A stretch of DNA of 64,000 bases from positions 1 to 64,000 of the forward strand of contig UCHD01000007.1 in assembly GCA_900472175.1 (NCBI GenBank). Direction: 5' to 3'. This document shows, one piece after another, positions 12,370 through 51,772 of the stretch. Source of the stretch: Hyphomicrobiales bacterium. Its GTDB lineage: Bacteria > Pseudomonadota > Alphaproteobacteria > Rhizobiales > Rhizobiaceae. The notes under the pieces are model-generated. The model was not told the DNA's origin, did no database searches, and was given only the letters and a program-made list of their open reading frames with translations. Both the position numbers and the translations under genes were made by a program. How positions within the stretch are numbered: the first letter of the stretch is position 1; each line of letters starts with the position of its first letter.

Positions 12370-12385
12370 GGATTCACGTGAAACA
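12370..12385. other. parS-like site overlapping a start codon
   Basis: GGATTCACGTGAAACA matches the ParB target TGTTTCACGTGAAACA at 14 of 16 positions, with the TTCACGTGAA core intact. The GTG in the core is the candidate start codon of the downstream transglycosylase gene, and its AAGGAGG ribosome binding site overlaps the left edge. Confidence 0.5.
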
Positions 12386-13301
12386 CGCCCTCCTGATACT
12401 GTGCCAACATCGTGACAGACGCCGCAAAGACTGGCATTTTGCAGGCACAAATTTGGATTCGGGCAATACGGGGTTTTACATGCACAAGGCAAAGTGCGTA
12501 CTGGCAGGTTTCACGGCGATGATGGCGGCGGCAATTCTGCCGTCGGTTGCATCCGCCGCACAGTGCAGCAACACATCGGCGGGCTTCGAGGCCTGGGTTG
12601 AAGACTTCAAGGGTGAGGCCGCAGGCCGCGGCATCAGCCCGGCTGTACTGAACAAGGCGTTTGCCAACGTCACCTACAACAAGGCGACGATCCGCGCCGA
12701 CCGTGGCCAGAAGAGCTTCAAGCTGTCGCTGAGCCAATTCATGCAGAAGCGTGGCGGCCAGACGATCATCTCGCGCGGCAAGAAGATGAAGGCGCAGAAC
12801 GCGGCCCTCTTCAACTCCATCGAAAACCGCTACGGTGTACCGGCCGGCCCGATCATCGCGATCTGGGGCATGGAAACCGGTTTCGGTGGCTTCCTGGGCA
12901 AGGAACACACGCTCTCGGCCGTCGCGACACTGTCGTTTGACTGCCGCCGTTCCGACTTTTTCACCAACCAGCTCTATGCGGCGCTGACCCTCGTGCAGCG
13001 CGGCGACCTTAGCCCCGACGCCCGCGGTGCAGCGCATGGCGAAATCGGCCAGACGCAGTTCCTGCCGGCCAACGTGCTGAAATACGGCGTCGATGGCGAC
13101 GGCAACGGCCATATCGACATGGTCCGCTCCAAGGCGGACGCACTTGCCTCGACCGCCAACTTCCTGCGCGGACACGGCTGGACCGCTGGTGCCGGCTATC
13201 AGCAAGGTCAAGCCAATTTCGGTGCGATCCAGGGCTGGAATGCCGCCAGCGTCTACCAGCAGGCAATCGCCATCATCGGCGCCGAAATCGACGGCGGCTG
13301 A
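12378..13301 (+). CDS. Lytic murein transglycosylase (MltB/SLT_2 type)
   Basis: Cleaves the MurNAc-GlcNAc bond of peptidoglycan to form 1,6-anhydro products, in the periplasm. The core follows the MltB family: WGMETGFGG with the catalytic Glu, then GAAHGEIGQTQFLPANVLKYG, then a GDGNGHID calcium-like loop and ANFLRGHGW. The start is uncertain. A perfect AAGGAGG six bases ahead of GTG 12378 argues for 307 residues. The ATG at 12480 gives a clean signal peptide (MHKAKCVLAGFTAMMAA to ASAAQ) and 273 residues but has no good ribosome binding site. With the longer form, a basic 34-residue extension precedes the signal sequence. Followed by a strong bidirectional terminator. Confidence 0.85.
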   Translation: MKHALLILCQHRDRRRKDWHFAGTNLDSGNTGFYMHKAKCVLAGFTAMMAAAILPSVASAAQCSNTSAGFEAWVEDFKGEAAGRGISPAVLNKAFANVTYNKATIRADRGQKSFKLSLSQFMQKRGGQTIISRGKKMKAQNAALFNSIENRYGVPAGPIIAIWGMETGFGGFLGKEHTLSAVATLSFDCRRSDFFTNQLYAALTLVQRGDLSPDARGAAHGEIGQTQFLPANVLKYGVDGDGNGHIDMVRSKADALASTANFLRGHGWTAGAGYQQGQANFGAIQGWNAASVYQQAIAIIGAEIDGG

Positions 13302-13324
13302 TCCGCAACGCAGTTTTAGGAATA

Positions 13325-13365
13325 AAAAAATCCGCAGCCCGGGAAACCAGGCTGCGGATTTTTAT
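13325..13365. terminator. Bidirectional terminator between transglycosylase and carbonic anhydrase
   Basis: AAAAATCCGCAGCC, loop CGGGAAACCA, then GGCTGCGGATTTTT. A 10- to 12-bp stem with A- and T-runs on both sides, suited to two convergent genes. Confidence 0.9.
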
Positions 13366-13451
13366 TTGAGGTGAAGCGGCAACGCGGGATCAGGCGCCGA
13401 TTACCGGCATCGCAGATGTCTGACGGCCATGTGTGCCCGCCGCGCGGAGGT

Positions 13452-14093
13452 TCACATTCCCGGCCGGCCGAAATCACCGCTCTTGGCGTCCATAACCCAG
13501 AGCTCACCGGTCGAAATGTCGAACCAGGCACCGTGCAGCTGCAGTTTGCCGCGCTGTTCGAGGATTTGAACGCACGGGAAAGTCCGCAGATTGGCGATGG
13601 AGTTGCGGATGGACACGCGTTCCAGCGCCCTCTGGCGCTCACCGGCGGTCATCACCTCGTTGCTCTGGATCTGTTCCGCAGCCGGCTTCAGAAGGTGCAT
13701 CCAACGGCCGATGAAATCCCCCGGCGAGAGCGGCTCGGCATTGACATCGAGCGCAGCCTTGATGCCACCGCAACGGCCATGGCCCATCACGACGATATCG
13801 CTGACCTTCAGAACCTGGACCGCAAATTCCAGCGCCGCCGATGTCGAGTGATAGTGACCATCCGGCTCATAGGGCGGCATCAGATTGGCGACGTTGCGAA
13901 CGACGAACAGTTCACCCGGGCCGCTATCGAAAATGGTTTCCGGCGCCGCACGGCTGTCACAACAGGCAATGACAAGCGTCTTCGGTTGCTGACCAGTTTC
14001 CGCCAGGGCCTTGTATCGCTGTTGCTGCTCGCTGAAGCGGCCGCTCATGAAGTTGTTATAGCCCTTCAGCAACTGGCTCGGGAAACGCTGCAT
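13452..14093 (-). CDS. Beta-class carbonic anhydrase
   Basis: Interconverts CO2 and bicarbonate in the cytoplasm, supplying bicarbonate to carboxylases. The 213-residue protein has the beta-class zinc signature: Cys44 in ACCDSR with the Asp-Arg dyad at 46 and 48, then HGRCGG supplying the His and the second Cys ligand. The N-terminal helical arm needed for dimerisation is present, so the length is full. It is transcribed alone from the 214-bp gap before the pyridoxal kinase gene. Start at an ATG giving the usual short arm; no competing start is better. Confidence 0.95.
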   Translation of the reverse strand: MQRFPSQLLKGYNNFMSGRFSEQQQRYKALAETGQQPKTLVIACCDSRAAPETIFDSGPGELFVVRNVANLMPPYEPDGHYHSTSAALEFAVQVLKVSDIVVMGHGRCGGIKAALDVNAEPLSPGDFIGRWMHLLKPAAEQIQSNEVMTAGERQRALERVSIRNSIANLRTFPCVQILEQRGKLQLHGAWFDISTGELWVMDAKSGDFGRPGM

Positions 14094-14307
14094 GTTCGAT
14101 CACTCCGCTCTTTGAGTTAGTGGACATTTACAAATGTTCATGCCGACAGCCCGCGACATATCATCTTTGTGCGCCGCACACAGGCAAATTTACGGCAGCC
14201 CACGCCGCCGGTAATATCCGTGAAACTCTCCGTATCGTTTGCTTTGGGTGGAAACGGTTTATTCGCTCAAGGCATGTGCTGGCAAGAGGTAGATCGGCCG
14301 AACGATA

Positions 14308-15183
14308 TCAAGAGCGCCGTTTCTGCCCGGGATGCAGCAATCGCCGCATCTGAACCATGGCCATTGGCGTCGCCAGACTGGGGGCATCCCGCTCCAGCGT
14401 CAGTTCATCGGCACCGCGCTTGCCCGTGCGGGCGATGATCTCGAAAACGCTGGCCGTTGCCAGTTGCAGAGCCCGCTCCTCTTTCAGGTCCTCCAGAAGC
14501 CGGGCAACGAACAGGGCAGCCAGAAGATCGCCTGTGCCATTGGGCGGGTTGTCGATCATCCGATGCTCGGCCAGCAGCGCGTGATTGCCGGAAAGATAGA
14601 GATTGCCGGTGCTGCCCTGCATCATCGGGATGGCCGAGGTGACAAGCATGCGCGGCGGCCCGAGCGATAGCGCAGCCTCAAGAATGGCCGCATTCGATTC
14701 AAGCGCCGCACCGCAGAGCCAGGAAAGCTCGAATCGGTTGGGCGTAGCAAGCGAGGCCAGCGGGAGCAACCGGTCGCGCATCGCAATCGCCGTCGCCTCC
14801 GGCACGTATAACCCGCCGGCATCGCCCATCACGGGATCACAGGCATAGAACAGATCCGGATTCTTTGCCCGCAGCGCCTCGACCAGGCGCGCCACGCCCT
14901 CTGCCTGGTGGGCGCCACCGAGATAGCCGGACAGCACGGCGCGGACTTCGCCCGTCCATGGCGCACGGATGAGATCGTCGATCAACCGGTCGAAATCTTC
15001 GGCACCGACCGTTATTCGCGTCGAGGGGCCATGGCCGGGATGCCAGGGCAGGATAACCGTCGGCACAGCCCATACCGGATAGCCCAGCGTCTCCAGCGCA
15101 AAGACCGCTGCGCGATTGCCGACGGAGCCGCGAATCACATGGCTGGAAATGACGATGACGGCGCCGGGGGCAGGCTCGGACAT
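14308..15183 (-). CDS. pdxY: Pyridoxal kinase
   Basis: Phosphorylates pyridoxal to pyridoxal 5'-phosphate in the B6 salvage pathway (ribokinase superfamily). The 291-residue protein begins with VIVISSHVIRGSVGNRAA, which is the PdxY/PdxK substrate-binding opening. Near residues 118-124 it has the CDPVMGD motif, and near residue 225 it has the NGTGDLLAALF segment with the catalytic Asp and the anion hole. The length is typical. The promoter side of the gene faces the divergent glutamate dehydrogenase gene, so the 283-bp gap between them holds both promoters. Confidence 0.92.
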   Translation of the reverse strand: MSEPAPGAVIVISSHVIRGSVGNRAAVFALETLGYPVWAVPTVILPWHPGHGPSTRITVGAEDFDRLIDDLIRAPWTGEVRAVLSGYLGGAHQAEGVARLVEALRAKNPDLFYACDPVMGDAGGLYVPEATAIAMRDRLLPLASLATPNRFELSWLCGAALESNAAILEAALSLGPPRMLVTSAIPMMQGSTGNLYLSGNHALLAEHRMIDNPPNGTGDLLAALFVARLLEDLKEERALQLATASVFEIIARTGKRGADELTLERDAPSLATPMAMVQMRRLLHPGQKRRS

Positions 15184-15223
15184 TTCTGATTTTCCGCTAT
15201 TTCGACCTGTCCAGATCGCCTGA

Positions 15224-15241
15224 CAGTCATGCCGCTGTCAA
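15224..15241 (+). promoter_or_regulatory. PHO-box-like sequence in the pdxY/gdh gap
   Basis: CAGTCAT-GCCG-CTGTCAA: two half-sites with the same 4-base spacer as the alkaline phosphatase PHO box, each with one deviation from CTGTCAT. It could be a weak PhoB site or chance. It is about 225 bp ahead of the dehydrogenase start. Confidence 0.25.
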
Positions 15242-15466
15242 CTGCGGCTGCCAAAAGATCGCAAGGCTCATTTTGGCCTCGTCCATAAGAACAAGGAAAT
15301 ATGCGAATACAACCGATTGAATTCGAAAATCGGCCAATTCTTGCCGAAAATTTCATAAAACCATTCCGAATTGGATCAATCTGACCGAAAAATAGCCACA
15401 AAAACAATCGCCATGAACAAATCTTCTGTTAGGTTCGGCCAAATGGTGATTGCAGGGAGTACTGTC

Positions 15467-20254: not shown

Positions 20255-20257
20255 CAC

Positions 20258-20281
20258 TGTCCGCCCAAAACGGGGCGGACA
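20258..20281 (+). other. Hairpin after glutamate dehydrogenase gene
   Basis: GTCCGCCC-AAAACG-GGGCGGAC gives an 8-bp stem immediately after the stop codon, without a U-tract. It sits between two genes on the same strand separated by only about 30-40 bp and may be a processing or attenuation hairpin. Confidence 0.4.
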
Positions 20282-20297
20282 AGCGGTGGAGAATCAG

Positions 20298-21689: not shown

Positions 21690-21715
21690 AAAACCCGCCG
21701 AAAGGCGGGTTTTTT
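21687..21715. terminator. Bidirectional terminator between UMF1 transporter and purH
   Basis: AAAAAACCCGCC-GAAA-GGCGGGTTTTTT: a perfect stem with a GNRA loop, and A- and T-runs that serve both convergent genes. Confidence 0.95.
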
Positions 21716-21732
21716 AGCCGGTGATTGATGGT

Positions 21733-23346: not shown

Positions 23347-23471
23347 CATCAAGCTCCTTGGTAGGCGCCGGATATCGGGAGGTCTTCCGGCAAATGTCCG
23401 CCTGCCGTTAACACAGCTTTTGACCTGAAGAAACCGCAGTCACGGCAATGAGCGCTCTACCAAGGATATTG

Positions 23472-25157: not shown

Positions 25158-25313
25158 TTTCGACGCTTGCGCGTCTCCCTACTTCCCGGACAGGCCTCAC
25201 GCGGCATCGAAACCGGAATGACTGCTATCCGCACCAGATACTACCAGGACACGATCGTGCCGGAAAAACCGTTAAACTTTTATGGAACGGCACCCGTATT
25301 GTTTAGGCAAACG

Positions 25314-25345: not shown

Positions 25346-25364
25346 CCTGTTGACAGAGATGTCG

Positions 25365-27768: not shown

Positions 27769-27784
27769 TGTTTCACGTGAATCA
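27769..27784. other. parS-like site upstream of htpX
   Basis: TGTTTCACGTGAATCA differs from the parS consensus at one of 16 positions. It lies in the gap between htpX and the SdhAF4 gene. Confidence 0.75.
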
Positions 27785-33011: not shown

Positions 33012-34940
33012 CTAAGGATTATTGCTTACGTGCGGAAAACCTATGCCGCGCATCTCCAGCGCCGCAGCAATTTCATCAAGTACGGCCGGATCATCGATCG
33101 TCGCCGGCATCTTCCAGTCCTCGTGATCGGCGATCTTCTGCATCGTGCCGCGCAAGATCTTGCCCGATCGCGTCTTCGGAAGGCGCTTGACACAAATTGC
33201 CGTCTTGAAGGCGGCCACCGGGCCGATACGCTCTCGAACGAGGCCGACGACTTCCCTCTCGATATCGGCTGTTTCACGGGAAACATTCGCATTGATCACC
33301 AGGAAACCGGCGGGCACCTGACCCTTGATCGGATCGGCAATGCCGATAACGGCGCATTCCGCCACGTCGGCGTGGCTGGCGCAGATTTCCTCCATCGCGC
33401 CGGTGGACAGGCGATGACCGGCGACATTGATGATATCGTCAGTACGCGACATGATGAAAATATAACCGTCCGTATCGATATAGCCAGCGTCGGCCGTGCG
33501 GTAGTAACCCGGAAATTCGGCAAGGCAGGTGTCGCGAAACCGCTGATCGGCATTCCAGAATGTAGGTAGGCAACCCGGCGGCATGGGAAGCTTGATGACG
33601 ACATTGCCCAGCGTTCCCGTTTCAACGGGATGACCGGCATCGTCGAGCACCTGGACGTCATATCCCGGTAACGGCACGGCCGCCGATCCATATTTGACCG
33701 GCAGCAAGCCCAGACCGATCGGATTTCCGGCAACCGGCCAGCCCGTCTCGGTCTGCCACCAGTTATCGATGACCGGAACCTCAAGTTTCGCTTCCGCCCA
33801 TGCCACGGTATCGGGATCGGCACGCTCGCCCGCGAGGAACAGCGCCCGGAAGTTTGACAGGTCATGACGGCGGATCAGATCACCCTGCGGGTCTTCCTTG
33901 CGTATGGCGCGAAAGGCCGTGGGCGCGGTAAACAATGCCGTCACGCGGTGCTGTTCGATCACCCGCCAATAGGCACCGGCATCCGGCGTCCCAACAGGCT
34001 TTCCTTCATAGAGGATCGCCGTACTGCCATTCAGCAGCGGTCCATAGACGATGTAACAATGACCAACGACCCAGCCGATATCGGACGCAGCCCAGAAGAC
34101 CTCGCCGGGCTTGATGCCGAAGAAATGCTGCATCGACCATTTTAGGGCAACCATATGGCCGCCATTGTCGCGCACGACACCTTTCGGCTGCCCTGTGGTT
34201 CCCGACGTATAGAGAATGTAGAGCGGATCCGTGGCCAGAACCGGCGTGCAAGGGACCTCGGCTCCGCGCTGTTTTGCGGAAGTGGCCGCCACGGCAAAAT
34301 CGATATCCCGGCCGGCCTGCAGCCCTGCCTGGAGCATCTCGCGTTGGAAAACGAGGCAATGCGCCGGCTTATGCTGGCTGATCTCGATAGCCGCATCAAG
34401 CAGCGGTTTGTATGCAATCGTTCGTCCAGCCTCGATGCCACAACTGGCAGAAACAACCAGCTTCGCCTCGCAGTCGGTGATCCGCGTTGCAAGCTCGCTT
34501 GCCGCGAACCCGCCAAAGACGACGGAGTGAACGGCGCCGATACGGGCCGCCGCCAGCATCGCAAACACTGCCTGCGGGATCATCGGCATATAGATGATGA
34601 TCCGGTCACCCTTGGTAACACCAAGATCACGATAGACCGACGCCAGCGCTACCACTTCATCGAGCATGGCGCGATAGGTCCAGTGTTCCACCGTGCCGGT
34701 AACGGGGCTGTCGTAGATCAGGGCGTTCTGATCGCCGAGACCAGCTGCAACCTGACGATCGAGGCAATTGAAACAGGTATTGGTTTCACCGTCCGGAAAC
34801 CAGCGTCCGTAAACACCTTGGTTGGGATCAAAAACCCGTTCAAAAGGCACAAACCAGTTGATCTCTCCGGCCGCATTGGCCCAAAAGGTTTCGGGATCCT
34901 GTTTCCACGCGCCATAAACACCGGAATAGCTGCTCGCCAT
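33012..34940 (-). CDS. prpE: Propionyl-CoA synthetase (acetyl-CoA synthetase family)
   Basis: A 642-residue ANL-superfamily ligase with the PrpE-type opening (YSGVYGAWKQDPETFW) and NTCFNCLDR. The phosphate-binding loop is YTSGTTGQPKGVVRD, and WWQTETGWPVAGNP and the C-terminal KTRSGKILRG with the acylation-switch lysine follow. The wording of these motifs fits propionyl-CoA synthetases better than AcsA. GGAGGAG seven bases before the ATG at 34940 sets the start. A near-parS 16-mer lies inside the gene, read as VSRET near residues 553-557. No prpBCD genes are nearby, so the route from propionate onward is probably through propionyl-CoA carboxylase. Confidence 0.88.
   Translation of the reverse strand: MASSYSGVYGAWKQDPETFWANAAGEINWFVPFERVFDPNQGVYGRWFPDGETNTCFNCLDRQVAAGLGDQNALIYDSPVTGTVEHWTYRAMLDEVVALASVYRDLGVTKGDRIIIYMPMIPQAVFAMLAAARIGAVHSVVFGGFAASELATRITDCEAKLVVSASCGIEAGRTIAYKPLLDAAIEISQHKPAHCLVFQREMLQAGLQAGRDIDFAVAATSAKQRGAEVPCTPVLATDPLYILYTSGTTGQPKGVVRDNGGHMVALKWSMQHFFGIKPGEVFWAASDIGWVVGHCYIVYGPLLNGSTAILYEGKPVGTPDAGAYWRVIEQHRVTALFTAPTAFRAIRKEDPQGDLIRRHDLSNFRALFLAGERADPDTVAWAEAKLEVPVIDNWWQTETGWPVAGNPIGLGLLPVKYGSAAVPLPGYDVQVLDDAGHPVETGTLGNVVIKLPMPPGCLPTFWNADQRFRDTCLAEFPGYYRTADAGYIDTDGYIFIMSRTDDIINVAGHRLSTGAMEEICASHADVAECAVIGIADPIKGQVPAGFLVINANVSRETADIEREVVGLVRERIGPVAAFKTAICVKRLPKTRSGKILRGTMQKIADHEDWKMPATIDDPAVLDEIAAALEMRGIGFPHVSNNP
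33270..33285. other. parS-like site inside prpE
   Basis: TGTTTCACGGGAAACA: one mismatch to the parS consensus, but in the central CACGTG. Translated on the minus strand as VSRET. ParB affinity may be reduced because the central palindrome is broken. Confidence 0.45.
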
Positions 34941-38553: not shown

Positions 38554-39073
38554 AAAAGCTCAAAGATACCTGCGGCTTCTGGCTTTCAGCACGCTCGCGG
38601 CTCTCGCCGGTTGCCAGGTCAAGCCGCTTTATTCGGACGGTCCGCAGGGCAAGCCCGCAAAGGCGCTCGCCTCGATCGAAATCTCCGAAGCCGATGACCG
38701 CGTCGAGCAGGAGGTGCGCAACGCGCTGATCTTCCTAACCTCGGGGGGCGCTGGCGAACCGGTGAACGCTCAATACAAGCTGGCTCTGAATGTCACCAGC
38801 AAGACCCAGGGCGTTCTATACGATCAGAACACCAAGGACGACAATACCGATACCGCAAGTGCCGCCCGCATCGTCGTCATGGCCGATTACAACCTGACAC
38901 GCGCCGATACGGGTGAAACCGTTCGTTCCGGCAACCGGACCGCTGTCGCGCTCGTCGATTTTCCGGGCCAGGAATTTGCCAAGGTTCGCGCCGGGCGTGA
39001 TGGCGAAAAACGGGCCGCCAAGGAGCTGGCGGAGATCATCCGTGCCGACCTCGCAGCAGCGCTCGGCCGCTGA
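38540..39073 (+). CDS. lptE: LPS-assembly lipoprotein LptE
   Basis: An outer-membrane lipoprotein that plugs the LptD barrel and helps place LPS on the cell surface. The 177-residue protein has a lipoprotein signal peptide with lipobox LAGC (Cys25), a short N-terminal strand VKPLYSD, and an alternating beta/alpha pattern typical of the alphaproteobacterial LptE group. The start codon lies 14 bp inside leuS, so translation is probably coupled. It is followed 26 bp later by holA. Sequence similarity in this family is low, so the call leans on the lipobox and the leuS-lptE-holA order. Confidence 0.88.
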
Positions 39074-39098
39074 TCAATCAGCGGCGTAAGGTGGCGGT

Positions 39099-40133: not shown

Positions 40134-40189
40134 ATTTATCTATCTGATACTATTGTATATTCTCAGATTATTTCGTATCCGAATCGATA

Positions 40190-41077
40190 TCAGCGCCGTT
40201 CGAGCAATCGGCAGATCTCTTCCAACTGGTCGAGCGTCTTGTAGGAGATCCGCAACTGCCCGCCGGACGCCTTGTGATTGACGGTCACGTCAAGTCCCAG
40301 GCTGTCGGACAGGGTCCGCTCCAGCGCCAGCGTATCGGCGTCCTTTTCCTCCTTGGGGGAGGGCTTGCCATAGCTAGGGTCACTCTGGGCCCGGATATCG
40401 TTTTGCGCCAGCCGCTCGGTATCGCGCACGGAAAGACCCTTGGCGATGATCGAGCGGGCCAGCGTTACCGGATCGGACGTCGGGATCAGCGCGCGGGCAT
40501 GGCCGGCGGACAATGTACCCGAAGACAGCATGTCCCGAACCGGCTCCGGCAGTTTCAACAGGCGCAGGCTGTTGGCCACGTGGCTGCGGCTCTTGCCGAT
40601 AATTTCTCCGAGATCGTTCTGCGTATACCCGTGTTCGGCGATCAACTGATCGTAACCCAGCGCTTCTTCAAGCGGATTAAGATCGGATCGCTGGACATTC
40701 TCAACAATGGCAATTTCCAGAGCCGTGCGATCATCGACGTCCCGAACGATGACGGGAATATCAGTAAACCCTGCCAGCTGGGCTGCACGCCAGCGGCGCT
40801 CGCCTGCAATGATTTCGTAGCGTTCATCAGCGATGGTGCGAACGACGACGGGCTGGACGATGCCGTGCTGGCGGATCGAGCTTGCGAGGTCCTGGAGTTC
40901 TGCCTCATCAAAGGTCCGCCGCGGATTGCGCGGATTGCGGGCGACAAACTCGATCGGAATGCGCCGGTCAGCATTGACGGGCGCAACAGGGCCGCTCGTT
41001 TGCAAGGGCTGGTCCATCTCACCGATCAGCGCCGCAAGACCGCGTCCAAGTCTACGTCTCGAATTGTCGTCATTCAT
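40190..41077 (-). CDS. parB: Chromosome partitioning protein ParB
   Basis: ParB binds parS, spreads as a CTP-dependent clamp and positions the origin. The 295-residue protein has the N-terminal CTPase fold with RRTFDEAELQDLASSIRQHG and the GERRWRAAQLAG motif. The helix-turn-helix domain with EIIGKSRSHVANSLRLLKLP contacts parS. The C-terminal dimerisation domain ends in a leucine-rich segment. It is the downstream partner of parA (45 bp apart). Six parS-like sites in this window are its expected targets. The length is normal for chromosomal ParB. Confidence 0.97.
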   Translation of the reverse strand: MNDDNSRRRLGRGLAALIGEMDQPLQTSGPVAPVNADRRIPIEFVARNPRNPRRTFDEAELQDLASSIRQHGIVQPVVVRTIADERYEIIAGERRWRAAQLAGFTDIPVIVRDVDDRTALEIAIVENVQRSDLNPLEEALGYDQLIAEHGYTQNDLGEIIGKSRSHVANSLRLLKLPEPVRDMLSSGTLSAGHARALIPTSDPVTLARSIIAKGLSVRDTERLAQNDIRAQSDPSYGKPSPKEEKDADTLALERTLSDSLGLDVTVNHKASGGQLRISYKTLDQLEEICRLLERR

Positions 41078-41122
41078 GATCAGTACTCACACTTATCGTT
41101 ACGATATCGAATCAATTGCCGC

Positions 41123-41917
41123 TCAAGCCGCCTTCCGCAGCCGTTCGCGTTGAATCACTTCCGATGCCAGTTGAAGGTAGGCCTGGCTACCCGCACATTT
41201 CAGATCATAGAGGATCGCCGGCTTGCCATAGGAGGGCGCCTCGGAAACGCGCACGTTGCGCGGGATCAGCGTATGATAGACCTTCTCACCGAGATGAGTC
41301 CGTACGTCGTTGACCACCTGCTGGGCGAGATTATTGCGGGAATCAAACATGGTCAGCACGATACCCTGAATATCCAGGGTTGGATTGACCGACCGCCGAA
41401 CCTGATCGACGGTCTCCAGCAACTGGCTCAGACCTTCCAGCGCGAAGAATTCGCATTGCAGCGGCACCAGCACGGAATGGGCGGCGGCCATGGCATTCAT
41501 CGTCAGCAGGTTGAAGGATGGCGGGCAATCCACCAGAACGTAGGAATACGCGAGCGCTTCGGGAGAGGCGAGCGCCCTGCGCAACCGGAAAACCCGATCG
41601 CTGGCCGCTGAAATTTCCATCTCGACGCCGAGCAGATCCATCGTCGATGGAACGATTGAAAGGTTGGGAACCACGGTATCCTGCACGACTTCGCCGATGC
41701 CATGGGATCCAACCATCAACTCATAGGATGACAGCTTGCGGTCGCGCCGCTGAATGCCAAGCCCGGTGCTGGCATTGCCCTGCGGATCGAGATCGACGAT
41801 CAGGACTTTTTCACCGATGGCGGCCAAAGCGGTTGCGAGGTTGATGGCTGTCGTGGTTTTCCCAACGCCGCCCTTCTGGTTGGCAATCGTGATGATCCTG
41901 TTCTTCTCGCCTATCAT
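41123..41917 (-). CDS. parA: Chromosome partitioning ATPase ParA (Soj)
   Basis: A 264-residue deviant-Walker ATPase that binds DNA nonspecifically and is pulled into gradients by ParB. The deviant Walker A motif is [18 protein letters not shown] at about residues 11-28, with the signature lysine in KGGVGKT. The [12 protein letters not shown] and [13 protein letters not shown] segments supply Walker A' and B. It lies 14 bp after rsmG and 45 bp before parB, so the operon is mnmG-rsmG-parA-parB. Size and lack of an N-terminal DNA-binding domain mark it as chromosomal rather than plasmid type Ia. Confidence 0.97.
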
Positions 41918-41931
41918 GCCGCATACCGCCG

Positions 41932-42570
41932 TTATTGAGTTTTGCGCGAAAGATTTGCGATTTCGAGAACCACGGAGTCTGGCTCGACGACGCTCTGATG
42001 TTTTACCAGATCAAATTGAAAGCGGCTAACAGCTTTGTCGACTTCCTGCTGATAATCCCGGCCTTTGTGGAAGAAAGCCCGTGGTTTGTTATCCGCGGTC
42101 ATCCATGGCGCACAGTAATCGAGGAGCTGGCCGAGGTCTGCGAGCGCCCGCGCCGAAACCGCATCACATTGCGGAATGACATTAACCGCATCCTCGATGC
42201 GAATCGGGTGCACAGAACCGCGTCCGCCGGTTTCATTCAACGCCACACGAAGGAATGCCGCTTTCTTGTTGTTACTCTCGACGAGATGAACCCAGCCGTC
42301 TCCGAGTTCGGCCAGGAAGATGGCAGTGATAATACCGGGGAAGCCGCCGCCACTGCCGAGATCGACCCATCGTTTCGGCCCCGGAAACAGCTGAAATATT
42401 TGGGCGCTATCAGCAATATGCCTCTGCCAAAGATCCGCCAGCGTCGATGGCGCTACCAAGTTGATCGACTTTGCCCATTTCTGGAAAAGGTTGGAAAAAT
42501 GCTCGAGCCTTTCGGACGTTTCACGTGAAACACGTAATCCGTTTAGCTCACGGGAAGGACTCGCAATCAT
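41932..42570 (-). CDS. rsmG: 16S rRNA (guanine-N7)-methyltransferase RsmG (GidB)
   Basis: Methylates G527 of 16S rRNA with SAM; loss gives low-level streptomycin resistance in many bacteria. The 212-residue protein has the SAM motif [11 protein letters not shown] near residues 70-80 and [10 protein letters not shown] further on. Its start overlaps the mnmG stop by 4 bp and parA follows after 14 bp. Residues 14-18 (VSRET) are encoded by a parS-like site, so this part of the sequence is constrained by ParB binding as well as by coding. Confidence 0.95.
42517..42532. other. parS-like site inside rsmG
   Basis: CGTTTCACGTGAAACA: 15 of 16 match to parS with the central TTTCACGTGAAA palindrome intact. 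It is read in rsmG as VSRET and lies 1.4 kb from the parB gene start. Confidence 0.85.
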
Positions 42571-44450
42571 TGAATCGCCTGTTTTGAATACGCTGCTGAG
42601 GTGTGTTTTACCTTGCGCATATGCGCAAGGATCAACGATATGGCAGACGGTGTAATGCCGTCTACCTTCATGGCCTGAGCCAAATTGCGAGGCTTTGCGG
42701 CTTCGAGTTTCTGCTTCAGTTCATTCGAGAGACCCGAAAGCAGCTGGAAATCGAAGTCGTCAGGGATGACGCGATTTTCTTCGCTACGGACGCCTGCGAT
42801 GTCCGACGCCTGTCGCTCCATATAGACGGCATAAGTCGCATCGATCTCAAGCGCCTCCGCAAGTTTGCTATCAATCAGGGACAGTTCCGGCCAGACGGTG
42901 CTCAAGGATTGGATTGAGTGATCCGCATAGGAGAGAAGCTCAAACGCTGACCGGCGCTGTCCATCCAGATTCAGTTTCAGTCCGTGCATACGACCTTCGG
43001 TTGGGGTTACCGTCAACGACTGAAGCAATTGTTTGTTGCGGTCGATATCTGAGACCCATGTGTCAAATTTTGCAGCTCGCTCCGCTGAAACACAGCCGAG
43101 TGAAATTGCTTCCCGCGTGAGCCGGACGTCAGCATTGTCTGCCCGCAACGACAGGCGATATTCTGCCCGGGACGTAAACATTCTGTATGGTTCTGCCACA
43201 CCCCGCGACGTGAGGTCGTCGATCATGACGCCGATATAGGAATTGGTGCGGCTGAACAGATGGGGTGCGCTACCGGCACACAACAAAGCAGCGTTTAACC
43301 CGGCGACCAGGCCTTGCGCGCCGGCCTCCTCATATCCCGTCGTGCCATTGATTTGACCGGCAAGGAACAGCCCGGGGATCTTCATGACTTCCAGTGACAA
43401 CGAGAGCTCACGCGGATCGACGTGATCGTACTCGATGGCATAACCCGGTTGCAGGATGGCAACAGGCTCCAGCCCGGGGATCGTTCTGATAAATGCTTGC
43501 TGTACATCCTCCGGCAGCGAGGTCGAAATTCCGTTTGGATAAACGGTATCGTCATCAAGGCCTTCCGGTTCCAGGAAAATCTGGTGGCCGTCACGTTCGC
43601 CAAACTTGACGATCTTATCTTCTATGGAAGGGCAGTACCTTGGACCAACCCCTTCGATTTGTCCCGAATACATCGCCGATTTCAGCAGGTTGTCCGAGAT
43701 GATCTTGTGCGTCGCATCCGTCGTTCGTGTCACACCACAGTCGATCTGGCGGTTGAGAATGCGGTCTGTCATAAAGGAGAAGGGGACCGGATCTTCATCT
43801 GCGCCCTGGCGGCCAACCGATTGCCAATCAATCGTCTTGCCGTCCAAACGCGCCGGCGTTCCCGTCTTCAAGCGACCAAGCCGCAAACCGAAGCGTTCCA
43901 GAGTAGCGGACAGTCCGAGTGAAGGGTCTTCACCAACCCGCCCGGCAGGGATTTTACGATTGCCGATATGAATGAGACCACGCAAAAACGTACCGGTGGT
44001 CAGTACCGCGGCGCCGCCGGAGATATGACGGCCGTCAGCAAGAACGACACCGCAGACACGACCATTCTTCAGTTGCAGATCAAAGGCATCGCCTTCGATA
44101 ACATCGAGGTTTTCGATCGCCTGGATTTCGGCCTGCATGGCCAGTCGATAAAGCTTTCGATCGGCCTGCGTACGTGGGCCGCGAACTGCCGGGCCTTTCC
44201 GGCGATTCAGCAAACGGAACTGGATCCCGGCTGCATCAGCGATACGGCCCATGAGACCATCCATCGCATCAATCTCGCGCACCAGATGTCCCTTGCCCAG
44301 GCCGCCGATCGCGGGGTTGCAGGACATGACGCCGATCGTATCCCGCCTATGCGTGATCAAGGCAGTTTTGGCGCCCATACGTGCCGCGGCACTGGCCGCT
44401 TCGCAACCCGCGTGGCCACCGCCGATGACAATCACATCATAATCGAACAT
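42567..44450 (-). CDS. mnmG: tRNA uridine-34 5-carboxymethylaminomethyl modification protein MnmG (GidA)
   Basis: MnmG, an FAD enzyme, works with MnmE to modify the wobble uridine of several tRNAs. The 627-residue protein has the FAD dinucleotide motif [11 protein letters not shown] at residues 8-18, [19 protein letters not shown] near residue 45, the [19 protein letters not shown]-type segment (here ending AGAQG), and a helical C-terminal domain that binds MnmE and tRNA. The upstream gap to mnmE is 92 bp and contains a parS-like site. It heads the mnmG-rsmG-parA-parB operon. Confidence 0.97.
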
Positions 44451-44487
44451 TTTAGACCGTCTCCATCACGGTATTTCGGTAGCGAAT

Positions 44488-44503
44488 CGTTTCACGTGAA
44501 ACA
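44488..44503. other. parS-like site between mnmE and mnmG
   Basis: CGTTTCACGTGAAACA, identical to the rsmG site, 15 of 16 to consensus. It is in the 92-bp intergenic gap, so it is free of coding constraint. Confidence 0.88.
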
Positions 44504-44542
44504 TACGTCGAGACTCGTCAACGTTGTATACCCGATTGCATC

Positions 44543-45883
44543 TCACTTTCCGATGCAAAACTCTGAAAAGATGACACCGAGCAGATCTTCAACATCCACG
44601 CGGCCCGTTATTCGACCGAGGGCATCCCCGGCCTGGCGCAAATACTCGGCTTGAATATCAAGTCCACGATTTGATTGTATCAAACTCATCTCGATAGCTG
44701 AGTGAGCTTGTTGCAGGCAACTCACATGCCTCTTACGAGTCGGCAACGAAAGCGCGTTTTGACCAGAGATCTCCGGCAGAAAACTTGTAACGACCTCGAT
44801 AAGCCGATCAATGCCAGCGCCCGTCACCGTCGAGATCAGCACGTCGGCGCTGGCGTTATCCCACAAAAGAGGCGTTCTATCAATCTTCGTACCGATGCGG
44901 ATGACCGGCTTTGCCGTGCCAAGTTCCTCCAGTGGAACAAACCCTTCGGGTGTGTCCGCGAGCAACAGGATGACATCTGCCTGATCGATTGTCAGATAAG
45001 CGCGCCGAATGCCTTCCTGTTCAACACGATCGGCGGTCTCCCGTAACCCGGCAGTATCGAACAGTTGAACGCGGAATCCGGCTAAGGAAAGATCGACCGA
45101 AAGAATGTCGCGCGTGGTTCCAGCGATATCGGTGACAATAGCTACATCCCGGCGTGCCAAACAGTTGAGCAGACTGGACTTTCCCGCATTCGGCTCGCCG
45201 GCAATAACGATCTTCAGACCATCGCGAATGATCTCCGCAAGCCCAGCGCCTTCCAGATGCGCTCCAATCTCCGCCTTCAGATCACGCATGTCTGCCCAGA
45301 TCCTGTCTGCAACGGAACCCGGAACATCATCTTCATCGGCGAAGTCCAGTTCGGCCTCGATCATCGCTCTCGCATGGGTCAGTCTACGCGCCCATCCATC
45401 GTAGGTCGTAGAGAGCTTGCCGCTCGAATGCTCCTGCGCAAGCCGCCGCTGCATCTCCGTCTCTGCTGAAATTAGGTCAGCCAGTCCCTCGATCTCAACC
45501 AGATCGAGTTTGCCGTTGTGAAACGCGCGCCGTGAAAACTCGCCAGCCTCCGCGTGTCGCAGCCCGGGTTGTGCTTCCAGTTCCGCAAGGACGGCGTTCA
45601 CGACTGCCCGGCCACCGTGCACCTGCAATTCGGCGCAGTCTTCCCCGGTAAAGGATGAGGGAGCAGCAAAGTAGAGAACGAGACCCTGATCGAGAATATC
45701 ACCATTTCGAGTCCGAATCGATCGCAACACAGCTTGCCGCGGTGCAGGGAGGGAACCGCACACTTCAGCCAAAACCCGTGATGTCTGCGGTCCGCTGATA
45801 CGAATGACTGCGACACCCGATGGCAGGGCGCCGGAGGACAAGGCATAGATCGTATCTGACATGATCTGTGTCGGCTGGTTCAA
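44543..45883 (-). CDS. mnmE: tRNA modification GTPase MnmE (TrmE)
   Basis: Partner of MnmG in wobble-uridine modification. The 446-residue protein has an N-terminal tetrahydrofolate-binding domain (about 1-125), a helical domain, and an inserted G domain with G1 GEPNAGKSS and G3 DTAGLRET. It ends in the essential CxGK motif (FCIGK). The start is a TTG with AAGGGAT ahead at good spacing; the ATG 21 bases downstream would give MSDTIYALSSG and has no ribosome binding site. It is separated from mnmG by a parS-bearing 92-bp gap, and from rho by a terminator. Confidence 0.96.
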   Translation of the reverse strand: MNQPTQIMSDTIYALSSGALPSGVAVIRISGPQTSRVLAEVCGSLPAPRQAVLRSIRTRNGDILDQGLVLYFAAPSSFTGEDCAELQVHGGRAVVNAVLAELEAQPGLRHAEAGEFSRRAFHNGKLDLVEIEGLADLISAETEMQRRLAQEHSSGKLSTTYDGWARRLTHARAMIEAELDFADEDDVPGSVADRIWADMRDLKAEIGAHLEGAGLAEIIRDGLKIVIAGEPNAGKSSLLNCLARRDVAIVTDIAGTTRDILSVDLSLAGFRVQLFDTAGLRETADRVEQEGIRRAYLTIDQADVILLLADTPEGFVPLEELGTAKPVIRIGTKIDRTPLLWDNASADVLISTVTGAGIDRLIEVVTSFLPEISGQNALSLPTRKRHVSCLQQAHSAIEMSLIQSNRGLDIQAEYLRQAGDALGRITGRVDVEDLLGVIFSEFCIGK

Positions 45884-45984
45884 GGCGTAATCCCTTATCG
45901 CCGTCGCAACATCATGACAGCGCGATTTCTAAACAGTGAATCCGGAAAAGGAATCCGGCTACGTAGTTTTCCCTAAAAACACAA

Positions 45985-46007
45985 AAGCCCAGGCTGAGCC
46001 TGGGCTT
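45985..46007 (-). terminator. Terminator of rho
   Basis: AAGCCCAGGCT/AGCCTGGGCTT stem with almost no loop; on the minus strand it is followed by TTGTGTTTTTAGG. It ends the rho transcript ahead of mnmE. Confidence 0.85.
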
Positions 46008-46029
46008 CGTGCAAAATTGTGACCACGGG

Positions 46030-47295
<1,266 letters not shown>

Positions 47296-47489
47296 GAAGG
47301 GGACCACACTTGGAATTCGGAAAGGAAAGTCGGCGTGCTTGATGTAAGGGGAGCTGCAGCGGAAGGGGCAGGCTCGTAACGTTTACACATGCCACGAAAG
47401 AGGAGATGGCGGGAAAATAGCGACTCACTCGTTGCGCCGCAAGGGGGCAACGAAAATTACCGGAAGTTTCCTTCTCCAACAGTCAAAGC

Positions 47490-48029
47490 TCAAAAAGGTT
47501 TCACCACCGCCATGATGACGATCAGGATCATCAGCAACGTCGGCGCTTCGTTCATCAGCCGCCAGTAACGGGCGCTATGGGTATTTTCATCGCGCGCAAA
47601 AGCTCTGACCGCACGGCTGAACATCACGTGGACGCCGGTCAGCAGAACGACCAATAGAAGCTTGGCATGCAGCCAGCCGCCCTGAAAACCATAAATGCTC
47701 CAGGCAAGATAAAGACCGAGCACCCAGGTGATCATCATCGCCGGGTTCATGATGACCTTCAAAAGCCGCTGTTCCATCATCTTGAAGGTTTCCGACTGCT
47801 CGGAACCGGCAGCGGCGTCGGTGTGGTAGATGAACAGCCGTGGCATGTAGAGCAGGGCGGCCATCCACGACATCACCGCAATGATGTGTAAGGCCTTGAT
47901 CCAGAGATAGAGATTATCCGGCTGCCAGATGAACAGCCCAGCCAGCAACGCGACGAACAGGCCGATCGCGATAAAGGCGCGGGCGCGGGCCTTCTTTCCC
48001 GGCCGGATATCCGTCTGCCGCTCGATCAT
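47490..48029 (-). CDS. hemJ: Protoporphyrinogen oxidase HemJ
   Basis: Oxidises protoporphyrinogen IX to protoporphyrin IX, the penultimate step of haem synthesis, in the inner membrane. The 179-residue protein has four or five membrane helices; the family motifs [21 protein letters not shown] (with the essential His) and [14 protein letters not shown] near the C-terminus are present. The start overlaps the hemE stop by 4 bp, so the pair is translated together. The length and motifs fit HemJ rather than the unrelated HemG or HemY oxidases. Confidence 0.93.
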
Positions 48030-49060
48030 CGTGCCGCTCCGCGAACACGGGCAACCAGCTGTGTAACGTGTTCGGGATCGGCCTGTGGCGTAATGCCATG
48101 GCCGAGATTGAAGATCAGAGGGCCATTTCCAAGCTTTTGCAGGATCGCATCGATCCCGTCATCCAGCGATTTTCCGCCGGCCACCACCCGCATCGGATCG
48201 AGGTTGCCCTGAACCGGACCATCCTTCTGCAGCTCGGCGGCAAACGACAAAGGCACGGACCAGTCGAGACCGATGGCATCGGCGCCGGTCGCCTGGCGGT
48301 AATCCTTGAGCAGAATTCCAGCGCCCTTGGCAAAGGCAATGATCTTCGCCTGAGGGCGACGGGAACGAACGCTATCGATCATCCGGCGCACCGGATTGAC
48401 GGCGTAGCGGCGGAATTCCTCCTCGCCCAGAACGCCGGCCCAGGAATCGAAGATTTGAACTGCATCGGCACCGGCATCGATCTGTTCGACCAGATAGTCC
48501 GCAGAGACCTCAGCAAGCACCGCCAGCAGCCGATCGAACGCTTCGGGGTTCTGATAGGCAAAAAGCCGTGCCGGGGCCTGGTCAGGCGTTCCTTGCCCGG
48601 CAATCATATACGTGGCGACAGTCCAGGGCGCGCCACAGAAGCCGAGCAGCGTCGTTTCACCCGGCAGTTCGCGGCGCAAACGGCGAACCGTCTCCATGAC
48701 CGGCTGCAAATGGGCGGATACGGGCTTCACATCGAGTGAGGCAATTTCCGAAACGTCGATCGGATCCATACGTGGTCCATGCCCTTCTTCGAAGCGAACA
48801 TTGCGCTTCAGGGCATCGGGAATGACGAGGATGTCAGAAAACAGGATGGCTGCGTCAAACGCATAACGCCGGATTGGCTGCAGCGTCACCTCAACAGCCA
48901 TATCGGGCGAATAACAGAGATCGAGGAAGCTTCCGGCCTTGGCTCGTGTCTGCCGGTATTCGGGAAGATATCGACCAGCCTGCCGCATCAGCCAGATTGG
49001 GGGAGGTGAAAGCGTTTCACCCTTCAACACCTGTAGGACTTTACGGCTTTGCGCAGTCAC
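48026..49060 (-). CDS. hemE: Uroporphyrinogen decarboxylase
   Basis: Converts uroporphyrinogen III to coproporphyrinogen III, cytoplasmic. The 344-residue protein has the two family signatures: [16 protein letters not shown] near residue 22 and the [14 protein letters not shown] segment near residue 141. Starts with GTG; GGGAG lies about 10 bases upstream. It is the first gene leftward of the probable replication origin, as in other Alphaproteobacteria where hemE flanks the chromosomal origin. Transcribed with hemJ (4-bp overlap). Confidence 0.97.
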
Positions 49061-49078
49061 CGGACACGTTCTCCCATT

Positions 49079-49118
49079 CTAAAAGATATCTATATCTAAG
49101 GATTCTATTTCTTAGAGT
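49079..49118. other. AT-rich candidate unwinding element in oriC
   Basis: CTAAAAGATATCTATATCTAAG followed by GATTCTATTTCTTAG. It is about 80% A+T in a GC-rich chromosome and includes two small inverted repeats. It sits at the hemE edge of the origin region, to one side of the DnaA boxes. Confidence 0.6.
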
Positions 49119-49293
49119 CTGTGACTATCAAGGATTAAACCCCGTCCGACTCTTTTCCACATGCTGGAGCGTTCATTAGAATCCTTTGCATCGTTTTGCC
49201 ATGCGACAGATAGGAGCGGGGACAATTTCGAAAAACGATGAAGAGTCATCAACTTGGTTTGCGTTTCGAATTGATGCCGGAATGTGGACAGCT

Positions 49294-49302
49294 TGTGGAT
49301 AA
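49294..49302 (-). promoter_or_regulatory. DnaA box (perfect)
   Basis: TGTGGATAA on the plus strand, i.e. TTATCCACA on the minus strand, the strongest consensus DnaA site. Confidence 0.85.
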
Positions 49303-49371
49303 CGTTGAAGATTTGCAGATCGATGAGTCTTCTCCACATGCCGGCAGAATCCAGCTCCCCAGAATCCAGAT

Positions 49372-49380
49372 TGTGAATAA
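49372..49380 (-). promoter_or_regulatory. DnaA box (perfect to TTATNCACA)
   Basis: TGTGAATAA on the plus strand, i.e. TTATTCACA on the minus strand. It has the same orientation as the 49294 box, 78 bp away. Confidence 0.8.
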
Positions 49381-49464
49381 CTCGCAGGTTTTCCCCTTGC
49401 CTTCGAACCCGCCCGGTCCTTAGCTATCGCTGTCCCGGTTTATCAACAGCCCACGGAGAATAGC

Positions 49465-50289
49465 GTGGAGAACCAGAAAAACTATTTCCACCTGCACCTG
49501 ATCTCCGATTCGACCGGGGAAACGCTGATTGCCGCGGGCAGGGCGGCCGCCTCGCAATTCCAGTCGGCGCATGCGCTCGAGCATGTCTATCCGCTGATCC
49601 GTAACCGCAAGCAGCTGATGCAGGTGATGGAGGCGGTCGATGGCGCGCCGGGGATCGTGCTTTATACGATTGTCGATCGCGAACTTGCCGATATCATCGA
49701 CGTGACCTGTAAGGAGATGGGCTTGCCCTGCGTTTCGGTGCTGGAGCCGATCATCGACCTTTTCCAGTCCTATCTTGGCGCGACGTCGCGACGGCGGTCC
49801 GGGGCGCAGCATGTCATGGACGCAGATTATTTCGCCCGCATCGACGCGCTGAATTTCACCATGGATCACGATGATGGGCAATTGCCGGCAGATTTCAACG
49901 ACGCGGATGTTGTGCTGATCGGTATCAGCCGGACATCGAAAACCCCGACCAGCATCTATCTCGCCAATCGCGGTATCAAGACCGCCAATATTCCGATCGT
50001 GCCGGGCGTGTCTCTGCCGGACCGGTTGATGGAAGCAACCAAGCCGCTGGTGGTTGGCTTGATCGCAACGGCGGACCGGATCTCGCAGGTTCGCCAGAAC
50101 CGTATTCTGGGCACGGCGGCGCATAGCTATCACGCCGAGGACTATGTCGACCGCGCCTCGATTGCGGAGGAACTGAAATATGCGCGCTCGATCTGCGCCC
50201 GCAACAACTGGCCGATGATCGATGTGACGCGCCGGTCGATCGAGGAAACGGCTGCCGCGATCGTTGCCCTCCGGCCCCGGCTGCGTTAA
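49465..50289 (+). CDS. ppsR: PEP synthase/PPDK regulatory kinase-pyrophosphorylase (DUF299)
   Basis: A 274-residue DUF299 protein. Family members both phosphorylate (with ADP) and dephosphorylate pyruvate-phosphate dikinase or PEP synthase, controlling gluconeogenesis. The nucleotide-binding motif is in [19 protein letters not shown] at about residues 152-170, and the N-terminus [13 protein letters not shown] is typical. The GTG start has GGAGAA eight bases upstream. It is the first gene right of the origin; this hemE/ppsR arrangement is a recognised alphaproteobacterial origin signature. Transcribed toward maf, aroE, coaE and dnaQ. Confidence 0.93.
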
Positions 50290-50313
50290 GGCGAATCCGG
50301 TCAAACAGGATAA

Positions 50314-50919
50314 ATGACAATGGCAGGCTCTCTTGTCCTCGCTTCGGCGAGCCCGTTCCGTCGCATGCTGCTGGAAAATGCCGGCATCGCTTTCCAGGCA
50401 AAAGCAGCCGATATCGACGAGCGGGCGATTGAAGGCCAGGTCGAACGGCAGGGGTCCTCACCAGAAGAGGTTGCGCTGATCCTGGCCGAAGCCAAGGCGA
50501 GAAATGTCGGGCAGGCTTTTCCGGACGACATCATCATCGGCTCGGATCAGACAATGTCGCTCGGCGCCAGGGTCTACCACAAGCCCCGCGATATGAATGA
50601 GGCGCGCGACCATCTGTTGTCGCTGTCCGGTCAGGTCCATCAGCTGAACAGCGCCATCGTGCTGACCCGGGGAAATGACGTGCTCTGGAAACACGTCTCC
50701 TCCGCCCGCATGTCTGTACGGGTTTTGACCCCCGCATTCATCGAGGCTCATCTTGGGAGGGTCGGAAACAAGGCGCTGGCCAGCGTCGGTGCGTATCAGC
50801 TGGAAGGCGAGGGCATCCAGCTGTTCGATAAAATCGACGGCGACTATTTCACAATTCTCGGGCTGCCCATGCTGCCGCTGCTCGCAAAACTCAGGAATCT
50901 ACGGGTGATCGATGCGTGA
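50314..50919 (+). CDS. maf: Maf-family nucleotide pyrophosphatase
   Basis: A 201-residue Maf/HAM1-like pyrophosphatase that hydrolyses noncanonical or methylated nucleoside triphosphates. The N-terminal substrate loop SASPFRR is at residues 9-15, the GSDQTMSL motif is near residue 72, and the tail has [15 protein letters not shown]. The last 8 bases overlap aroE, and the start is 24 bp after ppsR, so it is part of an operon with both. The aroE start within it contains a parS-like site. Confidence 0.93.
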
Positions 50920-51772
50920 TTCACGTGAAACATTTGTTAACCACGCCTTCGTCACGGGCTATCCGATCAAGCATTCCCGCTCCCCGCTGATCCATGGATA
51001 CTGGCTGAAACAGCTTGGTTTGCCGGGAAGCTACAAGGCCCATGCCGTATCTCCAGAGGATTTTCCTGATTTCATCGCGTCGCTGAAAAATGGCCAAACC
51101 GGTTTCACCGGCGGCAATGTGACGATCCCGCACAAGGAGCTGGCTTACGCCCTGTCCGACCGGCCCGATGCGTTGAGCACCGAGCTTGGTGCATCCAACA
51201 CCCTGTGGGTCGAGGAAGGACTTGTGCATGCGACCAACACGGATGGTTATGGCTTCAGCGCCAATCTCGACGCGCGCGCGCCCGGATGGGATAACTGTCG
51301 GACCGCCGTCATTCTTGGGGCGGGCGGTGCCAGCCGGGCGGTGATCCAGGCGGTCCGCGATCGCGGCGTCAAGACGATCCATGTCATCAACCGCACGGTA
51401 GCCCGCGCCCAGGAACTGGCTGACCGGTTCGGGCCGGCGGTGCATGCGCAGCCGATGGATGCTCTTCGCGAGGTGATGACCGATGCAGGCCTGTTTATCA
51501 ACACCACGTCGCTCGGGATGGATGGGACGGAAGTGCCGCAGATCGATTTTACCGTCATGGCCTCCGGCAGTATCGTGACGGATATCGTCTATGTCCCCTT
51601 GAAGACGCCGATCCTGGCGCAAGCCGAAGCGGAAGGTTTTGCCACGGTCGATGGGCTCGGCATGCTGCTGCACCAGGCCGCACCCGGATTCGAAAAGTGG
51701 TTCGGAAAGAGGCCAACGGTCGATGCGGCCCTGCGCCAGATTATCATCGACGACATGGCGAGCCACGCATGA
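50912..51772 (+). CDS. aroE: Shikimate dehydrogenase
   Basis: Reduces 3-dehydroshikimate with NADPH. The 286-residue protein carries [13 protein letters not shown] (residues about 15-27), the catalytic-lysine motif [11 protein letters not shown] near residue 74, and the NADP-binding GAGGASRAV near residue 135. The first ten residues ([10 protein letters not shown]) extend beyond the usual AroE start. They are largely the translation of a parS-like 16-mer, so the N-terminal extension may exist mainly to accommodate ParB binding. It overlaps maf by 8 bp and coaE by 4 bp. Confidence 0.96.
50917..50932. other. parS-like site at the start of aroE
   Basis: TGATTCACGTGAAACA: one mismatch to the parS consensus, core TTCACGTGAA intact. 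It is located in codons 2-7 of aroE and is the parS site closest to the proposed origin (about 1.5 kb). Confidence 0.85.

What the first reader, a model, noticed from the sequence alone, without database searches (positions are those of the whole stretch)
12370..50932. Cluster of six parS-like sites around parAB and the origin
Sites at 12370, 27769, 33270, 42517, 44488 and 50917 match TGTTTCACGTGAAACA at 14 to 15 of 16 positions. A 16-mer this close to a fixed consensus is not expected six times in 64 kb by chance. Two flank rsmG/mnmG near parB, one is 1.5 kb right of the origin, and others reach nearly 37 kb to the left. No site is seen right of 51 kb, so the spread is one-sided.
Basis: partly seen in the sequence, partly recalled or inferred. 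Interest (0 to 1): 0.75.

Follow-up and report, generated by a model that had tools for sequence, protein, structure and literature searches.

The report
Chromosomal parS centromere sites around origin
The six short repeated DNA sites are almost certainly the ordinary ParB-binding centromere (parS) sites of a rhizobial main chromosome; they lie on both sides of the replication origin, and most of their positions are kept in related species.

Summary
The six 16-mers exist as described: five match at 15/16, one at 14/16 (expected 0.11 at <=3 mismatches). Genome-wide (5.46 Mb) nine places match with at most 2 mismatches, eight of them on the window's 124-kb contig C26. They look like parS sites of a standard chromosomal ParABS system: parA and parB lie among them and ParB has parS-type contact residues. 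The one-sided spread is an edge effect: two more sites lie at C26:103088 and 119576, about +54 and +70 kb from the inferred origin.

In 26 genomes of the genus the exact 14-bp core is kept at the places of 12370, 27769, 50917 and 103088 in 25, 26, 26 and 25; the 33270 variant in 20; 119576 in 2. The two slots flanking mnmG are filled in 71 and 77 of 79 alphaproteobacterial loci.

A small extra: coding sites read SRET, and an AroE N-terminus MxDSRET occurs in 24 of 24 loci with the site and 0 of 46 without, so the centromere seems to dictate a piece of protein.

Verdict: real, ordinary, known kind; ParB binding is inferred.

The parts
12370..12385 (+). parS-like site GGATTCACGTGAAACA (14/16), upstream of or at the start of an SLT_2 transglycosylase gene; about -37 kb from inferred origin
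   Evidence: exact core at the homologous place in 25 of 26 genus genomes (missing in G011)
27769..27784 (+). parS-like site TGTTTCACGTGAATCA (15/16), 26 bp upstream of an M48 peptidase gene; about -21.5 kb
   Evidence: exact core in 26 of 26 genus genomes
33270..33285 (+). parS-like variant TGTTTCACGGGAAACA (15/16, one half altered), inside an AMP-binding acyl-CoA synthetase gene (called prpE-like here, name recalled), reads VSRET on the - strand; about -16 kb
   Evidence: present in 20 of 26 genus genomes; in five of the six others the homologous DNA is altered, in the sixth (G015) BLAST found no homologue
42517..42532 (+). parS-like site CGTTTCACGTGAAACA (15/16), inside rsmG codons VSRET; about -6.7 kb
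   Evidence: a 16-mer with <=2 mismatches in this slot in 77 of 79 testable alphaproteobacterial mnmG loci
44488..44503 (+). parS-like site CGTTTCACGTGAAACA (15/16), gap upstream of mnmG; about -4.8 kb
   Evidence: a 16-mer with <=2 mismatches within 450 bp upstream of mnmG in 71 of 79 testable loci
50917..50932 (+). parS-like site TGATTCACGTGAAACA (15/16) in the first codons of aroE (MRDSRETF); about +1.7 kb
   Evidence: in 26 of 26 genus genomes by pattern and spacing, BLAST homology checked in 13 relatives; AroE N-termini
40190..41077 (-). parB, chromosomal ParB
   Evidence: TIGR00180 189 bits over cut-off 58; Caulobacter ParB chain E 2e-71
41123..41917 (-). parA, ParA-type ATPase (Walker A KGGVGKTT read in the sequence)
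   Evidence: Sequence; ParA/RepA/MinD-type models matched, all 25 shown below their curated cut-offs
41932..42570 (-). rsmG, contains a parS site in its 5' codons
   Evidence: TIGR00138 over cut-off
42567..44450 (-). mnmG, flanked by the two best-conserved parS slots
   Evidence: TIGR00136 over cut-off
50912..51772 (+). aroE, N-terminus encoded by a parS site
   Evidence: NF001312 over cut-off
49061..49464 (.). inferred replication origin between hemE and ppsR: 5 of the window's 10 DnaA-box-like 9-mers (<=1 mismatch) fall here, incl. the only perfect one at 49294
   Evidence: the window total of 10 is itself not unusual: 6.0 expected, 8 of 100 shuffles reach 10; the crowding into 404 bp is the evidence; gene identities; hemE-linked origin layout recalled

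Best explanation
These are the chromosomal parS sites of an ordinary ParABS system in a Rhizobiaceae main chromosome. ParB dimers nucleate at each 16-bp palindrome, clamp and slide with CTP, and form a partition complex around the origin; ParA moves the duplicated complex, and ParB can recruit SMC and polar PopZ. The pair around mnmG next to parAB, plus the aroE site beside the origin, is the core. Sites at -37, -21.5, -16 and +54 kb (and, weakly, +70 kb) are satellites that widen the domain on both arms. Shown here: the sites, their clustering, their conservation, a ParB with parS-type residues, and genes for SMC and a PopZ-family protein. Inferred from other species: binding, sliding, recruitment and relative strength.
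For: Six sites vs 0.11 expected; 8 of 9 genome places on one contig. In 26 genus genomes a relaxed pattern gives 5-8 places per strand, reversed control 0 in 26 of 26. Positional conservation: 12370 in 25/26, 27769 in 26/26, 103088 in 25/26 with BLAST homology, 50917 in 26/26 by pattern and spacing with BLAST homology in 13 relatives; aroE-to-pckA site spacing 47.8-53.2 kb where both lie on one contig. 80 alphaproteobacterial mnmG loci (the best 80 of 578 found, a capped list) hold 264 such 16-mers, reversed control 0. ParB has R, S, K, G at the four specificity positions, mapped by the GKSR motif; R173 and G201 are described as conserved in ParB and as Q and R in Noc. An SMC gene over the cut-off and a DUF2497 gene (the PopZ family, recalled). 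A. tumefaciens parS1 has the B. subtilis consensus and ParB1 is enriched at parS1 in ChIP-seq (PMC9239152, passages).
Against: No binding data for this organism. Only the two sites near mnmG have both half-sites perfect; 33270 has one altered half and is absent in its form from 6 of 26 genomes; 119576 is in 2 of 26. In Caulobacter two of seven putative sites were weak, with little or no enrichment when placed in E. coli (PMC5815017, passages), so some of these may be weak too. ParA models are matched only below their cut-offs and the best NCBIfam model for ParB by E-value is Noc, below its cut-off. At <=2 mismatches the reversed control is not empty: 0 to 3 places per genome in 61 genomes, and in a few distant genomes up to as many as the real pattern (G050: 2 and 2).
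Confidence: 0.95

Rival explanations
1. The sites inside genes are by-products of conserved protein motifs ((V/D)SRET) and not selected as DNA.
For: The RsmG, PrpE-like and YejF-like sites and the AroE site all read SRET in one frame.
Against: 27769 and 103088 lie between predicted genes and are kept in 26 and 25 of 26 genomes; RsmG and AroE use the rare Ser codon TCA there (7.2% of Ser codons in 24 window ORFs; the PrpE-like gene uses TCC); where the PrpE-like gene lacks the site its peptide varies (VSRQT, VSRAT, VTRDT, VERDA, VTKPP); AroE homologues without the site lack the peptide (0 of 46).
Confidence: 0.02
2. The sites are operators of a transcription factor or nucleoid-occlusion (Noc) protein rather than ParB sites.
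For: TIGR04285 (Noc) is the best NCBIfam model for the window ParB by E-value, though below its cut-off (228 vs 315 bits); 27769 lies just upstream of a gene and 12370 overlaps a possible ribosome-binding site.
Against: Residues equivalent to R173 and G201 are ParB type, not Noc type; several well-kept sites sit in coding DNA or just after a stop codon; the sequence is the published parS consensus.
Confidence: 0.02
3. Only the core (rsmG, mnmG, aroE) is functional parS; the distal sites are relics.
For: Distal sites have one imperfect half; sites turn over (three of 26 genomes have one more site aligned to about 47.43 kb; the 33270 form is missing in 6 of 26).
Against: 12370, 27769 and 103088 keep a perfect 14-bp core in 25, 26 and 25 of 26 genomes while 60-bp flanks average 71-81% identity to this genome. 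The 100% core identity is by construction, since most rows were fetched by the core; the per-genome counts are not.
Confidence: 0.15

Closest known systems
Agrobacterium tumefaciens chromosome 1 ParB1/parS1 (PMC9239152, passages seen)
   Same: Same family of bacteria (recalled), same consensus, ParB1 enriched at parS1 near ori1, PopZ enriched at the origins
   Different: Positions of its sites were not seen by me: the earlier study, looked up by a DOI from recall, is not held
Caulobacter crescentus ParABS (PMC5815017, passages seen)
   Same: parS near origin, half GTGAAA kept, sites inside genes
   Different: Its five strong sites lie within 5 kb about 8 kb from the origin; here sites spread over about 107 kb on both arms
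Bacillus subtilis Spo0J/parS
   Same: Same 16-mer; widely spaced sites (four strongest 5, 13 and 39 kb apart, PMC5815017 passage)
   Different: Different organism and, from recall, different genes around the outer sites
repABC plasmid parS
   Same: ParB-type genes also lie on four other contigs of this genome
   Different: From recall, a different ParB branch and a different palindrome; not tested

Membership tests
Chromosomal ParABS / parS | 16-bp palindrome matching TGTTTCACGTGAAACA | tested here: met
   five at 15/16, one at 14/16; none perfect
Chromosomal ParABS / parS | Clustered in the origin region, rare elsewhere | tested here: met
   8 of 9 places on the origin contig; assembly is 50 contigs so distances beyond C26 are unknown
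Chromosomal ParABS / parS | Cognate parB with CTP-binding and parS-reading residues nearby | tested here: met
   GERR motif by reading (role recalled), R173/G201 equivalents by alignment
Chromosomal ParABS / parS | parA ATPase next to parB | tested here: met
   Sequence with Walker A; the 25 models shown are all below cut-off
Chromosomal ParABS / parS | Evolutionary conservation at fixed positions | tested here: met
   not met for 119576 (2 of 26)
Chromosomal ParABS / parS | ParB binding in vivo or in vitro | not testable with these tools
   No binding data
Noc / NBS | Q173 and R201 equivalents in the protein | tested here: not met
   Window ParB has R and G

The most novel reading that the evidence does not exclude
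This lineage has an extended, two-armed centromere of separate parS islands whose outer members (-37, -21.5, +54 kb, and possibly one at a yejF-like gene that in relatives lies some 125-210 kb out on the left arm) are held at fixed genomic places by selection, each loading its own ParB/SMC domain; and the centromere sequence dictates protein: an AroE N-terminal extension MxDSRET exists because a parS site was fixed there.
Probability: 0.35. Interest if true: 0.45.

Novelty: new member of a known kind. Interest (0 to 1): 0.27.

Why it matters
It gives a comparative parS map for a rhizobial genus, corrects the apparent one-sidedness, and shows a clear candidate case in which a centromere element sets the sequence of an unrelated enzyme's N-terminus. 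The fixed outer sites make it possible to ask directly what distant parS islands do beyond the core.

Tried and rejected
One-sided spread: rejected by C26:103088 and 119576. Chance: rejected. Protein-motif explanation: disfavoured. Noc/NBS: disfavoured on specificity residues. C3:107796 (start of a yejF-like ABC ATPase gene, named by eye, no family search) as a firm parS: left open. It recurs in 11 of 26 genomes and in six relatives lies on the same contig 88-175 kb outward of the 12370 homologue, but neither half is perfect and the 616-bp context is 88-94% identical in the nine relatives compared, so conservation proves little. Flank test: it does not single out the aroE site (72 of 193 flank windows as conserved, because the 34 rows include AroE loci that lack the site) nor cleanly the 33270 site (3 of 193); for rsmG and mnmG it had only 5 rows each. 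A terminator scan at the pckA site did not list the GC-rich hairpin visible by eye right after the site. Paper searches for parS with aroE/pckA or parS in coding sequence listed nothing that I recognised as on the point; I saw the listings only, and most subscription papers are not held. No structure prediction was run.

Full report
Observation. All six sites are present at the stated coordinates: five with one mismatch to TGTTTCACGTGAAACA, one (12370) with two. Shuffles give 0.11 on average at up to three mismatches and none of 100 reaches six. In the whole assembly (5,460,477 bases, 50 contigs) there are nine places with at most two mismatches: the six, C26:103088, C26:119576 and C3:107796; the reversed pattern gives two places. 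C26 is 123,947 bases long, 2.3% of the assembly, and holds eight of nine (binomial P about 6e-13).

Surroundings. parB (40190-41077) and parA (41123-41917) lie beside rsmG, mnmG and rho (mnmE between mnmG and rho is named by eye). hemE (48026-49060) and ppsR (49465-50289) bound a 404-bp gap with five of the window's ten DnaA-box-like 9-mers, including the only perfect one. The total of ten is not unusual (6.0 expected, 8 of 100 shuffles reach it); the crowding into one gap is the argument. I take this gap as the origin; the hemE-linked layout of alphaproteobacterial origins is recalled. From its middle the sites lie at about -37, -21.5, -16, -6.7, -4.8, +1.7, +54 and +70 kb. The finding's one-sided spread is therefore an effect of the window edge. 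The names pckA, glcB, yejF and prpE-like used below are by eye or recall; only the domains of the prpE-like gene were searched.

ParB. The window ParB matches the ParB/RepB/Spo0J domain model above its cut-off and the Caulobacter ParB chain at E 2e-71. At the four positions that separate ParB from Noc (173, 179, 184, 201 in Caulobacter numbering, mapped by me through the GKSR motif) it has R, S, K, G in the alignment; PMC7383237 (passages) states that R173 and G201 are conserved in ParB and that 179 and 184 are tolerant. The best NCBIfam model by E-value is Noc, but below its cut-off. The genome has four further ParB-type genes on other contigs, an SMC gene over the cut-off and a DUF2497 gene (PopZ family by recall; among the 14 control genomes this family rings only in Caulobacter).

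Conservation in the genus. With pattern NGWTTCMCGTGAAWCN, 26 of 26 genomes have 5 to 8 places per strand and the reversed control 0 in 26 of 26 (its list of places was cut, the counts were not). With GTTTCACGTGAATC and BLAST of the contexts: the 12370 place is kept in 25 of 26 (missing G011), 27769 in 26 of 26, 103088 in 25 of 26 (missing G014). The aroE place is kept in 26 of 26 by pattern and spacing, with BLAST homology checked in 13 relatives. The 33270 variant is in 20 of 26; in five of the six others the homologous DNA was read and is altered (in G004 by one more base only), in G015 no BLAST match was found. 119576 is in 2 of 26. The pckA-type site with its CCGG tail is in 20 of 151 family genomes, 16 of 109 genera; in 19 of the 20 the BLAST match to this genome's pckA context spans the site, in the twentieth (G161) it stops short. 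Most rows were fetched by the core itself, so its 100% core identity is by construction; only the counts per genome are evidence.

Conservation beyond. In 60 relatives plus this genome, 61 of 61 have at least one place at up to two mismatches, 1 to 10 each; the reversed control has 0 to 3 each, and in G050 it equals the real count. In 80 mnmG loci from named genomes (the best 80 of 578) there are 264 places at up to two mismatches and none for the reversed control. A place within 450 bp upstream of mnmG is found in 71 of 79 testable loci, one at the rsmG start slot in 77 of 79; the nine loci with a miss are L090, L097, L107, L108, L111, L116, L118, L119, L122, six of them Pelagibacterales.

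Half-sites. By reading the letters, all eight C26 sites keep at least one perfect half GTTTCAC/GTGAAAC; C3:107796 keeps none. In Caulobacter the GTGAAA half is the conserved one, and two of seven putative sites were weak (PMC5815017, passages). I therefore rank the rsmG and mnmG sites strongest, then aroE, 27769, 12370 and 103088, then 33270 and 119576; this ranking is inference.

Coding sites. Of the three possible frames one has a stop (TGA), one reads FHVK and one SRET. The four coding cases seen (RsmG VSRET, PrpE-like VSRET, YejF-like MNDSRET; AroE MRDSRET) use the SRET frame. In AroE, 24 of 24 loci with the site carry DSRET (12 fetched by mnmG, 12 through the pattern) and 0 of 46 without it do; loci with identical peptides, with matches starting beyond residue 60 or with too little upstream DNA were dropped before the count, and start codons were not verified. 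The site-free AroE proteins show shorter or unrelated N-termini. By their record titles the named carriers belong to one group (Rhizobiaceae and two records titled only Rhizobiales), so this may be a single gain. In the PrpE-like gene the peptide varies where the site is lacking. So the DNA site appears to set the peptide, not the reverse. Three paper searches bearing on this (listings only) showed nothing on it; most subscription literature was not searchable.

Turnover. Relatives G012, G018 and G023 have one more site in DNA that aligns to 46.9-47.9 kb of the window; at about 47421-47436 this genome has a diverged version by eye. Whether it was lost here or gained there is open.

Known status. 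[quoted passage not shown] tumefaciens parS1 consensus equals that of B. subtilis (PMC9239152, passages). The finding is thus a new instance of a known kind. Binding, loading of SMC and the role of the outer sites are inferred, not shown.

Noticed in passing
C26:103088-103103 (L008:1501-1516): parS site shortly after the pckA stop codon, running into a GC-rich hairpin (CCCGGCAC...GTGCCGGG) followed by T's, as if parS and terminator were merged; seen by eye, not listed by the terminator scan.
   Followed up: partly
window 47421-47436: Diverged counterpart of a GATTCACGTGAAAC site that three of 26 genus genomes (G012, G018, G023) have here; lost here or gained there.
   Followed up: partly
C3:107796 (L006:1501-1516): Double-imperfect parS-like 16-mer at the start of a yejF-like ABC ATPase gene (MNDSRET), in 11 of 26 genus genomes and 88-175 kb outward of the 12370 homologue in six of them.
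   Followed up: partly
window 42000-50000: G+C dips to 0.55-0.57 against 0.58-0.62 in the other 2-kb bins, and cumulative GC skew is lowest in the 44-46 kb bin, near the inferred origin.
   Followed up: no
window 12354-12500: The 12370 site overlaps a ribosome-binding-like AAGGAGG and a GTG at 12378, while a likelier ATG start with a signal-like peptide lies at 12480.
   Followed up: no
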